From contig BDTH01000076.1 in the NCBI GenBank assembly GCA_002923195.1, positions 1 through 42,951 on the forward strand: 42,951 nt of DNA, read 5' to 3'. Both the position numbers and the translations under genes were made by a program. Under the pieces are notes generated by a model, which did not search any database, was not told the origin of the DNA, and saw only the letters and a program-made list of their open reading frames with translations. The stretch comes from a bacterium BMS3Abin15 (GTDB taxonomy: Bacteria; Patescibacteriota; Minisyncoccia; Moranbacterales; 2-12-FULL-40-10). Of the stretch, positions 15,735 to 20,555 are shown one piece after another; the stretch's first letter is position 1; each line of letters starts with the position of its first letter.

Positions 15735-15782
15735 CAGAATTCAACAGACAGATAGCAATAAAATAAAATGACAGGGGGCTTG

Positions 15783-15812
15783 CCCCGTTAGAGGTGTGCA
15801 TCTCTAACGGGG
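15783..15812. repeat. Perfect 11-bp hairpin CCCCGTTAGAG-GTGTGCAT-CTCTAACGGGG
   Basis: Read directly; abuts the -35 box at 15813; no T-tract follows. Confidence 0.8.
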
Positions 15813-15841
15813 TTGACAATATTTTGATATATTGTTAATAT
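15813..15841 (+). promoter_or_regulatory. Near-consensus sigma70 promoter TTGACA-N17-TAATAT
   Basis: -35 at 15813-15818, -10 at 15836-15841, spacer exactly 17 nt. Confidence 0.75.
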
Positions 15842-15847
15842 GAAAAA

Positions 15848-16047
15848 CACGATAATTTAATATACAATTTTACCCCCACACCTATATTGATAACTGCACA
15901 TCTAATAATAACCATATTGTGGCGTTGGGGGTGAACACAATAATAGAGGTTTAACCTCTGAGCTTCAGGAATTAGGATAAGATTTTCGGATACCTCAATA
16001 GGGCATGCTTAGCATGCTTAATTGAGGCAAAGCTCCTCTATTTTTTT
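15848..16047 (+). ncRNA. Candidate structured noncoding RNA or leader (~200 nt), family unassigned
   Basis: Promoter at 5' side; helices ACCCCCA/TGGGGGT (15872-15878/15926-15932), AGAGG/CCTCT, GAGCTT/AAGCTC (15960-15965/16030-16035), CCTCAAT/ATTGAGG (15993-15999/16021-16027); TTTTTTT after CCTCTA at 16041. Confidence 0.55.
15942..16047 (+). terminator. Probable Rho-independent terminator of the candidate RNA
   Basis: AATAGAGG (15942-15949) can pair with CCTCTATT (16035-16042); U-run follows. Confidence 0.55.
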
Positions 16048-16054
16048 GTTTGTT

Positions 16055-16137
16055 TCTACTAATTACGAATTGTGTACGAATATACAAATAAATAATTCGT
16101 TATTGGTAAATTTGTAATCGATTTGTAATTTGTAGGA
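16055..16137. repeat. Imperfect hairpin element, copy B, upstream of infA
   Basis: TCTACTAATTACGAATTGTGTACGAATATACAAAT...GGTAAATTTGTAATCGATTTGTAATTTGTAGGA; aligns with 9785-9870. Confidence 0.7.
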
Positions 16138-16142
16138 AGTTT

Positions 16143-16355
16143 ATGGAAAAAGAAATAATTAAACTAGAAGGAACTATTGCGGAAACGTTGCCCAGCACCA
16201 CCTTTAAGGTTAAATTGGAAAACGGGCACGAAATACTGGCTCACATTTCAGGTAGAATGCGAGTCAACTATATTCGATTGCTTCCAGGAGATAAGGTAGA
16301 GGTAGAGATGAGTCCATATGATTTAACAAAAGGCAGAATAATAAAAAGATTATAA
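16143..16355 (+). CDS. infA: Translation initiation factor IF-1
   Basis: [59 protein letters not shown]. Confidence 0.96.
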
Positions 16356-16363
16356 ATAAAACT

Positions 16364-16434
16364 CACGAATTAAGAACTAATAAAAAGCGAATAAGAACGA
16401 ATATTCGCACCAATTAGTTTCTAATTCGTTCGTG
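16364..16434. repeat. Hairpin element between infA and rpmJ
   Basis: CACGAATTAAGAACTAAT (16364-16381) opposes ATTAGTTTCTAATTCGTTCGTG (16413-16434). Confidence 0.6.
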
Positions 16435-16449
16435 TTAGCGAGTTATTTT

Positions 16450-16563
16450 ATGAAAGTACGAGCATCAGTTAAAAAAATTTGCGCTAAATGCAAAATAGTC
16501 AAACGCAAGAGAAGACTCTATGTTATTTGTTCTAATCCTAAGCATAAACAGCGCCAAGGCTAG
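16450..16563 (+). CDS. rpmJ: 50S ribosomal protein L36
   Basis: Short ORF absent from the track: [37 protein letters not shown]. Confidence 0.96.
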
Positions 16564-16625
16564 TATGCGAAAAGCGCTCGCTCGCACTACGCACTCGCGA
16601 AATGCGAAAGCGCACATGCGAATAA
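16564..16625. repeat. GC-rich repeat/hairpin between rpmJ and rpsM
   Basis: ATGCGAAAAGCGCTCGCTCGCA...TGCGAAAGCGCACATGCGAA. Confidence 0.5.
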
Positions 16626-16670
16626 GTTCGTAGATTCGTATTTAATTCGTAGTTTCGTATCGGTATAATT

Positions 16671-17060
16671 ATGATAAGAATTGCGGGAATTAATATCCCC
16701 GATGACAAAAGAATAGAAATTGCCTTAACCTATATTCATGGAATAGGGAAGTCTTCAAGTGGGAAGATTTTAAGTAGTTTAAATATTAGCAGAGATACCC
16801 GAACAAAAGATTTAACATCAGAAGAAGCCAATAAACTTAGGGACGAGATAGAAAAGAAATACAGAGTAGAGGGGGAGCTTAAGCATGAAATTAAAACGAA
16901 CATTAAAAGATTAAAGGAGATCGGATGCTATCGAGGAATTAGGCACCAAAGGGGTCTTCCCGTAAGAGGCCAGAGAACCAAGACTAATAGCCGTACTGTT
17001 CGGGGAAATGTCAGAAGAACTATGGGAAGCGGAAGAAAACCGGGGGCAGAAAAAACATAA
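16671..17060 (+). CDS. rpsM: 30S ribosomal protein S13
   Basis: [30 protein letters not shown]...[19 protein letters not shown]. Confidence 0.97.
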
Positions 17061-17072
17061 TACTAATTACAT

Positions 17073-17516
17073 ATGGAAGAAATTAAGAAAGCTAAAGAAA
17101 AAGAAGGAACGGATCAAAAATCCGAGAGCGTTGAAGTACCGAAAAAAAAGAAAAGAAAAATCAGACATCATATTCAAAAAGGCCAGGCTCATATACAATG
17201 CACCTATAACAATACAGTGATAACCATAGCCGATATTAATGGCGCAGCTTTGGGATGGTCAAGTGCTGGACTTCTTGGATTTAAGGGAGCTAAGAAAGCT
17301 ACTCCGTATGCGGCCACTCAAATAGCGGCTGATGTAGCGGAGAAAGTTAAAAAGTATGGGATTAAAGAATTAGAAGTTTATGTTAAGGGAGTAGGAAGTG
17401 GAAGAGAAGCATCAATAAGATCATTGGCTAACAATGGCTTTAATTTAGTTTTAATAAAGGATATTACACCTATCCCCCATAATGGATGTCGCCCACGGAA
17501 ACCTAGAAGAGTATAA
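17073..17516 (+). CDS. rpsK: 30S ribosomal protein S11
   Basis: [30 protein letters not shown]...[18 protein letters not shown]. Confidence 0.97.
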
Positions 17517-17521
17517 AAATT

Positions 17522-18154
17522 ATGGCACGTAATTTAGATTCAAAATGTAAAAAATGCCGAAGAGCTGGAGAAAAGCTCTTTCTTAAAGGTGATCGTTGTG
17601 ATTCTTCTAAGTGCGCTATGGTGAGAAAGCCATACCCACCAGGAATGCATGGCAAGAGTTTTTCCCGAGGCCTCAGCGAATACGGAAAACAGTTGGCAAT
17701 GAAACAGAAAATAAAAAGAATTTATGGAATTATGGAGCGGCAATTCAGAAAGCATTTTAAAGAAGTTAAAAGAAAAACAGGTGTTATTGGGGATCTTCTG
17801 ATGGCACGTTTAGAGATGCGCTTAGATAATGTGGTTTATCGACTTGGCATTGCTGTTTCTAGAACTCTAGCACGTCAGCTTGTGAGTCACGGGTATATTA
17901 AAGTAAATGGGAAAATAACCAATATTCCGTCCTACGAAGTTAAAATAGGCGATACTATTTCTATTAATGAATTAAAAAAAGAAAAAAATTATTTAAAAAA
18001 TCAACTTCAAGTCCTGAACAGCAAAAAGAATTTTCCAAAATGGATTGAATTTGATGCGTCTAAGCTAGAGGGGAAGATTAAAGCAATGCCAAAAAGAGAA
18101 GATATTGATGCCAATGTTGATCCTCAAGTAGTTGTAGAGTATTACTCTAGATAA
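17522..18154 (+). CDS. rpsD: 30S ribosomal protein S4
   Basis: CKKCRRAGEKLFLKGDRC..., LEMRLDNVVYRLGIAVSRTLARQLVSHGYIKVNGK. Confidence 0.97.
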   Translation: MARNLDSKCKKCRRAGEKLFLKGDRCDSSKCAMVRKPYPPGMHGKSFSRGLSEYGKQLAMKQKIKRIYGIMERQFRKHFKEVKRKTGVIGDLLMARLEMRLDNVVYRLGIAVSRTLARQLVSHGYIKVNGKITNIPSYEVKIGDTISINELKKEKNYLKNQLQVLNSKKNFPKWIEFDASKLEGKIKAMPKREDIDANVDPQVVVEYYSR

Positions 18155-18202
18155 TAAAAATTTAAATTGTTTTATAGTGTTAATAATTATTAATATAAAA
18201 AA

Positions 18203-19186
18203 ATGACAACAATATCACTCCCCCAAAATCCAAAGTATACCGAAATTGACAAGAACAGCGGAAAATTTGAAATCCAGGGATGTTATCCTGGTTATGGAGC
18301 AACTATTGGAAATGCTCTTCGTCGAGTCTTACTTTCGTCATTAGAAGGGGCGGCCATAACCTCCATTAAAATTAAAGGGGTATCACATGAATTCTCTACC
18401 GTTCCTGGAATAATAGAGGATGTTATCCAAATTATTTTGAATATGAAGAAAATTCGTTTTAAAATGCATGGCGATAATTCAGTCAAGGTGACTCTGAAAT
18501 CCAAGAGTGAAGGGAAAATTACAGCCAAGGACATAAAGTGTCCCTCCGATGTTGAGGTAGTTAATGTTGATCAGATTATTGCTACCGTGAATGATAAAAA
18601 AACTGAAGTGGAGATGGAAATGGATATTTCCAATGGACTTGGATATATACCCGTAGAGCAACAGGAGAAGGAAAATAAGGAAATAGGCGTTATGGCGATT
18701 GATGCGATACACACTCCTGTAAAAAGAGTAAATTATAGTGTAGAAAATATGCGCGTGGGAAAAAGAACTGATTATGACAAGGTTACGTTGGAGGTAGTAA
18801 CTGATGGCAGCATTTCCCCACAGGACGCATTTGTTAAAGCAAGCCAGATTTTAGTAGACCAATTTTCTTCACTTCTTAAGATAGCATCCGAAAAAGAAAG
18901 TGAAAAAAAGGAGGCAAAAAAGGAGCCATTTTTGAAAACAGAAGAAATTAAAAAAGAAGAAGGAGATATTGAGATTGATGCACAAGAAACCGAAGTTACA
19001 GAACTTAAAAATCTATCCACCAGAACATTAAATGTTCTTGAGTCTAACAATATCAAAAAGGTTAAAGATATAACCCAATTAACAGAAGAAGAAATAAAGA
19101 ATCTTGAAGGCATGGGAGATAAGGGAATAAAAGAAATTAGAAAAACTATTGGGGATTTTGGATTAACACTTAAAAGTCACGAATAA
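18203..19186 (+). CDS. rpoA: RNA polymerase subunit alpha
   Basis: YPGYGATIGNALRRVLLSSLEGAAITSIKIKGVSHEFSTVPGIIEDV; C-terminal HhH domain. Confidence 0.97.
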   Translation: MTTISLPQNPKYTEIDKNSGKFEIQGCYPGYGATIGNALRRVLLSSLEGAAITSIKIKGVSHEFSTVPGIIEDVIQIILNMKKIRFKMHGDNSVKVTLKSKSEGKITAKDIKCPSDVEVVNVDQIIATVNDKKTEVEMEMDISNGLGYIPVEQQEKENKEIGVMAIDAIHTPVKRVNYSVENMRVGKRTDYDKVTLEVVTDGSISPQDAFVKASQILVDQFSSLLKIASEKESEKKEAKKEPFLKTEEIKKEEGDIEIDAQETEVTELKNLSTRTLNVLESNNIKKVKDITQLTEEEIKNLEGMGDKGIKEIRKTIGDFGLTLKSHE

Positions 19187-19284
19187 TCACGAATTTTGAT
19201 GAAAAAGGTAAACTTTTTCATCTCGCTAATCAACGCGAATAATTCGGGATAGTTGGAGACAGATTCGAGTAGATTAGCGATTTA
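19178..19284. repeat. Composite inverted-repeat element from the rpoA stop to the rplQ start
   Basis: CACGAAT x2; stem GATGAAAAA-GGTAAAC-TTTTTCATC (19198-19222); TCGCTAATC (19223-19231) / GATTAGCGA (19272-19280), perfect 9 bp. Confidence 0.65.
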
Positions 19285-19291
19285 TATCATT

Positions 19292-19657
19292 ATGAAGCAC
19301 AGAAAAACAGGTCGAAAATTAAGCAGAGTTAAGAGACAGCGAGAAGCGCTTATGAAAACGCTTCTGGGGAGTTTGATTATGTCCGAAAAAATTATTACTA
19401 CTGAAGCTAAAGCTAAAGAAGCAAAGTTATTAATTGATAAGATAATTAACAAAGCTAAAAAATCAAAAGCTGACAGCAAATTAAAAGTTTCAACAGTAAG
19501 AGGGTTAAAGAATAAGATTCCATCAGGGGCTGTTGATAAGCTCAGGGGTGATTTTCTGAATAAATTTAACAAAAGAAAAAGTGGCTACACAAGAGTTGTT
19601 AAGTTGCCTCCTAGAAAAAGCGACAGTGCCAAAATAGCAGTAATTGAATTTGTATAA
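19292..19657 (+). CDS. rplQ: 50S ribosomal protein L17
   Basis: MKHRKTGRKLSRVKRQREALMKTLLGSLI; start moved from 19253 to 19292 on homology to L17 N-termini. Confidence 0.95.
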   Translation: MKHRKTGRKLSRVKRQREALMKTLLGSLIMSEKIITTEAKAKEAKLLIDKIINKAKKSKADSKLKVSTVRGLKNKIPSGAVDKLRGDFLNKFNKRKSGYTRVVKLPPRKSDSAKIAVIEFV

Positions 19658-19661
19658 GCAT

Positions 19662-20051
19662 ATGAATAGAAAATATCACTCATTTAATGTTCGAGGGAAG
19701 ATTTTAGGCAGGATAGCAGTTGATATTGCTAAAGTTCTTAGCGGTAAGGGAAAAATTGATTTTTCGCCTCATATTGATGCTGGTGATTTTGCTGTAGTGA
19801 CTGATTCTGATGAAATTGCGGTAACGGGGAATAAGAGGGAAGGGAAAATGTATCACAGATTTAGCGGATATCCCGGGGGGATAACTTCAATTTCTCTTGG
19901 GGACCAAATTGAAAAAGATTCAAGAAAAGTCATAGAGAAGGCTGTATTCGGAATGCTTCCAAAAAACAGATTGAGAGGAAAGATGATGAAAAGACTTTTT
20001 ATTTACAAGAAGGATGATAAGCATAGTCACAAAGTTGACATTAAGCATTAA
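19662..20051 (+). CDS. rplM: 50S ribosomal protein L13
   Basis: MNRKYHSFNVRGKILGRIAVDIAKVLSGKGK...VFGMLPKNRLRGKMMKRLFIY. Confidence 0.95.
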   Translation: MNRKYHSFNVRGKILGRIAVDIAKVLSGKGKIDFSPHIDAGDFAVVTDSDEIAVTGNKREGKMYHRFSGYPGGITSISLGDQIEKDSRKVIEKAVFGMLPKNRLRGKMMKRLFIYKKDDKHSHKVDIKH

Positions 20052-20060
20052 TATTTTTAT

Positions 20061-20555
20061 ATGGCGGTAAAGAAATCTCAAGAAAAAACCCCCGCAAATA
20101 CTGAAGTTAAACCGAGCAAGGAAGAAAATAAGGAGAAGAAGAGTGTTGCCAAGAAAGACAAGTATTTTTATGCTGTAGGCAGAAGGAAAACAGCAGTTGC
20201 TCAAATTTTTCTGTACACAGGAGCAGGGCTTAAGAAAGATGGTTCAGTTGTGAATAATATGAGTGTAGAGAATTATTTTCCTACTTCAACAGAGCAAAGT
20301 ATATTTTTTGCTCCTGTTAAAGCTGTAGGATTGGAAGATAAATCGAGAGTTTCTGTTTTAGTTAGAGGCGGAGGAAAAAAAGGTCAAGTGGAAGCAGCTC
20401 GTCTTGGAATAGCTAGAGCCCTGGTTAAATTTGATGGGAATTTAAAAAAAACCCTCAAGGGTTTTGGTTTCTTAACTCGCGATGCGAGAAAGGTTGAGCG
20501 TAAGAAACCAGGTCTTAAGAAAGCTAGACGTGCTCCGCAATGGAAGAAGCGTTAG
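20061..20555 (+). CDS. rpsI: 30S ribosomal protein S9 with Lys-rich N-terminal extension
   Basis: YFYAVGRRKTAVAQIFLY...LTRDARKVERKKPGLKKARRAPQWKKR. Confidence 0.96.
   Translation: MAVKKSQEKTPANTEVKPSKEENKEKKSVAKKDKYFYAVGRRKTAVAQIFLYTGAGLKKDGSVVNNMSVENYFPTSTEQSIFFAPVKAVGLEDKSRVSVLVRGGGKKGQVEAARLGIARALVKFDGNLKKTLKGFGFLTRDARKVERKKPGLKKARRAPQWKKR

What the first reader, a model, noticed from the sequence alone, without database searches (positions are those of the whole stretch)
15770..16050. Candidate new structured ncRNA (~200 nt) with its own consensus promoter and terminator
Seen: an 11-bp GC hairpin directly abuts TTGACA-N17-TAATAT. Downstream lies a ~60-nt hairpin closed by ACCCCCA/TGGGGGT, then an AGAGG-CCTCT hairpin, a GAGCTT/AAGCTC stem enclosing CCTCAAT/ATTGAGG, a duplicated GCATGCTTA, then CCTCTATTTTTTT. 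There is no evident ORF. AGAGG can pair either locally (15955-15959) or with the terminator strand (16035-16039), a switch-like arrangement upstream of the infA/ribosomal operon. I see no RNase P, tmRNA or SRP signature motifs.
Basis: partly seen in the sequence, partly recalled or inferred. Interest (0 to 1): 0.8.

Follow-up and report, generated by a model that had tools for sequence, protein, structure and literature searches.

The report
New infA-operon leader RNA in Moranbacteria
A folded RNA segment at the start of the messenger for initiation factor 1 and eight ribosomal or RNA-polymerase proteins is conserved across one order of ultra-small uncultured bacteria (Moranbacteria); it is probably a new self-regulating switch of ribosomal-protein production rather than a free-standing small RNA.

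Summary
They are not one RNA but three things.

(1) 15783-15812 and 15872-15932 are copies of two interspersed inverted-repeat families of this genome; they are not conserved parts of the RNA.

(2) 15942-16051 is the core of a real structured RNA without an Rfam match. Its closing helix P1 (AATAGAGG/CCTCTATT) covaries strongly (0 of 500 shuffles) and leads into a T-tract. It encloses an almost invariant motif, CANGAAYKWGGAWWG. Covariance models find it in 77 of 131 genomes of the order. At least 21 of 23 further genomes that scored weak or negative and have infA also carry it.

(3) It is a cis leader, not an independent ncRNA. 69 of 70 inspected whole-genome hits lie directly upstream of infA, usually about 35 nt after a consensus promoter. 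In 19 genomes the infA ATG is 0-15 nt beyond the element, so read-through is required.

Best mechanism (inferred): an autogenous ribosomal leader. A protein of the infA-rpmJ-rpsM-rpsK-rpsD-rpoA-rplQ-rplM-rpsI operon, most likely S4, binds the motif, stabilises P1 and causes premature termination or a translation block.

Novelty: a new family of a known kind. The ligand is unproven.

The parts
15783..15812 (.). Copy of an interspersed inverted repeat (CCCCGTTAGA...TCTAACGGGG); not conserved in the leaders of relatives
   Evidence: Similar copies at G000 C52, C60, C16, C48, C39; its right edge runs into the TTGACA of the promoter, as it does in L213
15813..15841 (+). Promoter TTGACA-N17-TAATAT of the infA operon
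   Evidence: 10 of 12 consensus matches with TG before the -10; an equivalent promoter about 30-47 nt upstream of the core in nearly all relatives
15872..15932 (.). Decayed copy of an interspersed inverted-repeat (MITE-like) element ACCCCCACACC...GGTGTGGGGGT inserted between promoter and conserved core; explains the 100-nt spacing here against about 36 nt in relatives
   Evidence: At least 11 further copies of 54-108 bp read out in the own genome
15942..15949 (+). P1 5' strand AATAGAGG of the conserved leader RNA
   Evidence: Covariance models R1/R2, helix 92% paired, 5 of 6 central pairs with double changes, 0 of 500 shuffles
15945..15959 (+). Local hairpin AGAGG-TTTAA-CCTCT, alternative to P1; specific to this genome
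   Evidence: Pair probability 0.67 against about 0.26 for P1; absent from relatives
15966..15980 (+). Conserved loop motif, consensus CANGAAYKWGGAWWG; presumed ligand site
   Evidence: C, G and the second G of GGA invariant in 65 of 65, most other fixed positions above 92%
15993..16027 (+). Variable accessory hairpin CCTCAAT/ATTGAGG with the duplicated GCATGCTTA
   Evidence: Present as non-homologous hairpins in some clades and missing in others
16035..16051 (+). P1 3' strand CCTCTATT plus T-tract (terminator-like end of the leader)
   Evidence: P1 covariation; T-tract retained in the relatives
16143..16355 (+). infA (IF-1), first gene of the controlled operon
   Evidence: 69 of 70 leader hits directly precede infA
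16450..20555 (+). rpmJ, rpsM, rpsK, rpsD (17522-18154, S4), rpoA, rplQ, rplM, rpsI: rest of the operon
   Evidence: the same nine genes follow the leader in 17 of 17 genomes examined

Best explanation
Window 15942-16051 is the conserved core of the 5' leader of the infA operon mRNA in the order that holds the Moranbacteria (Patescibacteria). It is a new ribosomal-leader type of cis-regulatory RNA. Transcription starts just after the -10 box at 15836-15841. The nascent leader folds so that P1 (AATAGAGG with CCTCTATT) closes a domain that displays the motif CANGAAYKWGGAWWG. P1 runs straight into a T-tract and so can act as a terminator. Proposed switch: when a ribosomal protein made by this operon is in excess, it binds the motif, stabilises the P1-closed form and stops transcription at the T-tract. 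Where infA starts within 15 nt of the element, the closed form would also block ribosome access. In this genome the local AGAGG/CCTCT hairpin could be the competing read-through form. S4 (rpsD) is the most likely ligand. Shown: conservation, P1 covariation, the fixed association with infA, the promoter and T-tract, and the need for read-through. Inferred: attenuation as the mechanism, binding by a ribosomal protein, and S4 as that protein.
For: Whole-genome covariance-model searches hit 77 of 131 genomes of the order; 69 of 70 inspected hits are directly upstream of infA on the same strand. Of 23 weak or negative same-order genomes in which infA was found, at least 21 have the element upstream of infA. 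Outside the order: one borderline hit among the rest of 384 class genomes and three weak hits not upstream of infA in 380 phylum genomes. P1 covaries: 80 double-change cells against 41 +/- 5 in shuffles, 0 of 500; sliding the partner destroys it. Compensated versions include ACAGAG/CTCTGT and AAAGGCAA/TTGCCTTT. The motif is nearly invariant. The consensus promoter lies at near-constant distance. infA ATG is 0-15 nt after the element in 19 of 69 genomes, with no Shine-Dalgarno there. Same nine-gene operon including rpsD in 17 of 17. Precedents: S4 leaders predicted before rpsM-rpsK-rpsD-rpoA-rplQ in Clostridia and Fusobacteriales (PMC7247131); attenuation by L10(L12)4 in B. subtilis (PMC4538822) and by L20 on the B. 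subtilis infC operon (PMC10931766).
Against: No transcript or binding data. The loop between the P1 strands is 50-110 nt, far longer than in a classical terminator, so P1 needs the inner domain to be an efficient terminator. The inner helix P2 is not well supported over the whole set (2.3 sd; 52% of cells paired). The motif has no match above background in 16S rRNA, so rRNA mimicry of the S4 site is not seen, and it lacks the GUAA of the Firmicutes and Fusobacteria S4 leaders. The operon also encodes L13 and L17, which are ligands of known or predicted leaders. G019 and G022 have infA without a recognisable leader.
Confidence: 0.6

Rival explanations
1. Translational ribosomal leader: the protein-bound P1 domain sits just before the infA start codon and blocks 30S loading; the T-tract is a U-rich ribosome stand-by site, not a terminator.
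For: infA starts 0-15 nt downstream in 19 of 69 genomes, and only 12 of 69 have a Shine-Dalgarno-like string before infA. S4 acts on translation in E. coli and B. subtilis (PMC10931766).
Against: The T-tract stays attached to P1 even where infA is 88-132 nt further on, including the window (91 nt), which suits a transcriptional role better.
Confidence: 0.2
2. Independent small RNA with its own promoter and terminator, acting in trans.
For: It has a promoter, a compact fold and a terminator-like end. Strong termination would release a short RNA of about 110-200 nt.
Against: It is always next to infA (69 of 70), with no room for another promoter before infA in 19 genomes, no Rfam match, and lineage-specific 5' and inner parts.
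Confidence: 0.07
3. Leader sensing something other than a ribosomal protein: IF1 itself, an RNA-polymerase or Nus-type antitermination complex, or a small molecule.
For: infA is the constant first gene. The motif is near-invariant, as in an aptamer, and shows no 16S mimicry.
Against: The element is confined to one ribosomal-protein operon, the usual pattern for ribosomal-protein autoregulation (criteria in PMC7247131). No copy scored above background near 16S genes, where a nut-like site would be expected.
Confidence: 0.12

Closest known systems
Ribosomal leaders (r-leaders) as defined by Eckert and Weinberg 2020 (PMC7247131)
   Same: Structured 5' UTR, covarying helix, consistently upstream of an operon of ribosomal-protein genes, lineage-restricted
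   Different: Different sequence and structure, and infA is first in the operon. Neither infA nor Patescibacteria, Parcubacteria or candidate phyla is mentioned in that paper's main text. Ligand unknown.
S4 leaders of Clostridia and Fusobacteriales (rpsM-rpsK-rpsD-rpoA-rplQ) and Alpha_RBS (RF00140)
   Same: The downstream operon contains rpsM, rpsK, rpsD, rpoA and rplQ
   Different: Placed before infA, not rpsM. No Alpha_RBS match at the element; weak Alpha_RBS matches lie at the rpsM start and reflect its coding sequence. The conserved motif lacks GUAA.
B. subtilis rplJL (L10) and infC-rpmI-rplT (L20) attenuators (PMC4538822, PMC10931766)
   Same: Promoter-proximal leader with a terminator-like helix and a proposed protein-stabilised off state; the L20 leader also precedes an initiation-factor gene
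   Different: No homology found. Here the terminator stem is the long-range closing helix of the conserved domain itself, and no antiterminator conserved across the order was found.

Membership tests
Ribosomal leader (cis-regulatory RNA class) | Consistently upstream of ribosomal-protein genes, same strand | tested here: met
   69 of 70 hits precede infA; same nine-gene operon in 17 of 17
Ribosomal leader (cis-regulatory RNA class) | Covarying conserved secondary structure | tested here: met
   P1: 92% of cells paired, double changes 80 against 41 in shuffles, 0 of 500; inner helix inconclusive
Ribosomal leader (cis-regulatory RNA class) | Co-transcribed with the operon | tested here: inconclusive
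   Only by anatomy: promoter upstream, ATG 0-15 nt after the element in 19 genomes; no RNA data
[quoted passage not shown]
   Needs binding and reporter assays
S4 leader with rRNA mimicry (Firmicutes/Fusobacteria type) | Conserved GUAA or other resemblance to the 16S S4 site | tested here: not met
   Motif CANGAAYKWGGAWWG has no GUAA; motif matrix finds nothing above background in 16S loci
Alpha_RBS (RF00140) | Rfam covariance-model match at the element | tested here: not met
   No gathering match in the window, none at the element in 20 relatives at E<=3
Intrinsic terminator | Stem directly followed by a T-tract | tested here: met
   P1 runs into CTATTTTT or similar in the relatives
Intrinsic terminator | Short loop closing the stem | tested here: not met
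   50-110 nt lie between the P1 strands; the standard pattern scan lists no + strand terminator here
6S, RNase P, tmRNA, SRP or any other Rfam family | Covariance-model match | tested here: not met
   No gathering match in the window; permissive searches give nothing credible at the element

The most novel reading that the evidence does not exclude
The leader is an aptamer for a ligand not known to autoregulate in any bacterium, such as IF1 itself, coupling initiation-factor level to production of ribosomal proteins and the RNA-polymerase alpha subunit, with the closing helix of the aptamer serving directly as the terminator.
Probability: 0.1. Interest if true: 0.8.

Novelty: new member of a known kind. 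Interest (0 to 1): 0.55.

Why it matters
Regulation in the Candidate Phyla Radiation is almost unstudied by experiment. This gives a concrete leader RNA with a motif, a structure and more than 90 members, tied to an operon that sets ribosome and RNA-polymerase production. It would show that even these reduced genomes keep feedback control of ribosomal proteins, with a lineage-specific RNA, and it can be tested in vitro with purified proteins without culturing the organism. It also supplies a ready alignment for a new RNA family.

Tried and rejected
- Independent ncRNA: rejected by the fixed infA context and the short gaps.
- Known Rfam family: none.
- S4 alpha-operon site: near-threshold Alpha_RBS matches proved to be the rpsM coding start.
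- Mimicry of the 16S h17/h18 S4 junction: looked promising by eye, but relatives' 16S and a motif-matrix scan gave nothing above background. 23S could not be tested because the stretches fetched held no recognisable 23S.
- One common inner helix P2 for all clades: only weak support; clade-specific versions look convincing by eye but were not proven.
- nut/boxA-like antitermination site near rRNA genes: no hit above background.
- The ~60-nt hairpin as part of the RNA: it is a repeat copy.
- Literature: no paper found on infA leaders in this group.

Full report
Setting. The window is contig C76 of a 1.22-Mb genome. Several related contigs are public Moranbacteria records: for example G032:C11, G054:C5 and G061:C34 have the same lengths as DBRS01000010.1, JAUSNP010000005.1 and JALVPE010000034.1. 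Downstream of the finding lies infA-rpmJ-rpsM-rpsK-rpsD-rpoA-rplQ-rplM-rpsI.

Observation. The fold is more stable than 200 shuffles (z = -3.2) and there is no ORF of 40 aa or more. No Rfam family matches.

What belongs and what does not. Searching the own genome showed that the ACCCCCA/TGGGGGT hairpin (15872-15932) is one decayed member of a family of short elements bounded by ACCCCCACACC and GGTGTGGGGGT. At least 11 other copies of 54-108 bp were read out. The 11-bp hairpin before the promoter (15783-15812) belongs to a second family, CCCCGTTAGA...TCTAACGGGG, whose edge carries TTGACA in several copies. Neither is seen in the leaders of relatives. The first insertion explains why this genome has 100 nt between the -10 box and the conserved core, where relatives have about 36.

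The conserved core. A DNA search in 57 relatives gave short matches, some of which turned out to sit upstream of infA. Ten sequences were aligned and made into covariance model R1. R1 found matches in 76 of 131 genomes of the order at E<=0.1. Model R2 from 66 rows (one row is a likely chance match) found 77 of 131 at E<=0.01. Of 70 hits inspected with flanks, 69 are directly upstream of infA on the same strand, nearly all with TTGACA-N16/18-TAnnnT about 30-47 nt before the core. The one exception, L167, is a short hairpin without the motif. Of 23 same-order genomes that had scored weak or negative and in which infA was found, at least 21 show the element before infA on closer search; G019 and G022 do not. 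In a class-wide draw of 384 genomes all hits but one borderline case are in the order. In a phylum-wide draw of 380 the three non-order hits are weak and not before infA. The element is therefore specific to this order.

Structure. P1 pairs AATAGAGG with CCTCTATT. In 78 aligned rows the central P1 helix is 92% paired, five of its six pairs have changes on both sides, and the whole-structure covariation exceeds all 500 shuffles and all slid controls (66-row version). Compensated variants seen directly include ACAGAG/CTCTGT, AAAGG/CCTTT, AGAAGGT/ACCTTC and AAAGGCAA/TTGCCTTT. One clade keeps a G-G mismatch inside P1. Inside lies a motif with consensus CANGAAYKWGGAWWG, three positions of it invariant in 65 of 65. 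Inner helices are clade-specific and only weakly supported overall. The alignments were fitted to the model, which favours the tested structure; the control shuffles and slides do not remove that bias wholly.

Cis, not trans. In 19 of 69 genomes the infA ATG follows the element by 0-15 nt with no Shine-Dalgarno in between, so infA can only be expressed by reading through the element. The T-tract remains with P1 when infA is 88-132 nt away, so it is not simply an infA ribosome-binding feature. In the window the P1-closed form and the form with the local AGAGG/CCTCT hairpin differ by 0.5 kcal/mol.

Mechanism. The pattern (structured leader, covariation, fixed place before a ribosomal-protein operon) meets the published criteria for a ribosomal leader (PMC7247131). 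All 17 operons examined contain the same nine genes, so the context cannot single out the ligand. S4 is favoured because it is the ligand, proven or predicted, of several unrelated leaders before the same genes in other bacteria; L17 and L13 are not excluded. The helix-plus-T-tract end favours transcription attenuation, as for L10 (PMC4538822) and L20 (PMC10931766) in B. subtilis. A translation block is possible in genomes with short gaps. No resemblance to 16S rRNA was found, and weak Alpha_RBS matches nearby are the rpsM coding start.

Verdict. A genuine new family of a known kind of regulatory RNA. Existence as a conserved cis leader: about 0.95. Ribosomal-protein autoregulation: about 0.65. 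S4 as ligand: about 0.35.

Noticed in passing
window 15872-15932; L026, L027, L028, L029, L030, L213, L218, L220, L222: Interspersed MITE-like family ACCCCCACACC(W)...(W)GGTGTGGGGGT, 54-108 bp, with variable interior, many copies in this 1.2-Mb genome; no transposase was looked for.
   Followed up: partly
window 15783-15818; L213, L214, L219, L221: Second inverted-repeat family CCCCGTTAGA...TCTAACGGGG whose outer edge is TTGACA; in L213 and in the window it forms the -35 box of a promoter, so a mobile repeat may be supplying promoters.
   Followed up: partly
region just after the -10 box in relatives (e.g. L134, L123, L152): The first ~25 transcribed bases carry a loosely conserved box resembling ACRTTnnGAAAAAnTnAATAG, which might pair with the T-tract as an antiterminator.
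   Followed up: partly
L264, L265, L275, L276: In family f3 the order of rpsM and rpsK is reversed although the leader and the rest of the operon are unchanged.
   Followed up: no
L039 and L044, about 100 nt upstream of infA: Other Paceibacterota have a different shared hairpin before infA (GGTCCAGCTAnTGGTnCTnGTTGTTGTTTTGTTT) after a similar promoter; possibly an unrelated leader for the same operon.
   Followed up: no
window 16062-16120, 16363-16445, 16621-16660: Gene gaps in this operon are filled with repeated ACGAAT-type words, also seen in relatives (L117, L121, L138).
   Followed up: no
L239 (G091), L247 (G022), L253 (G019): infA leaders that kept P1 but lost the motif (G091) or lack the whole element (G022, G019): natural loss cases useful for testing function.
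   Followed up: no
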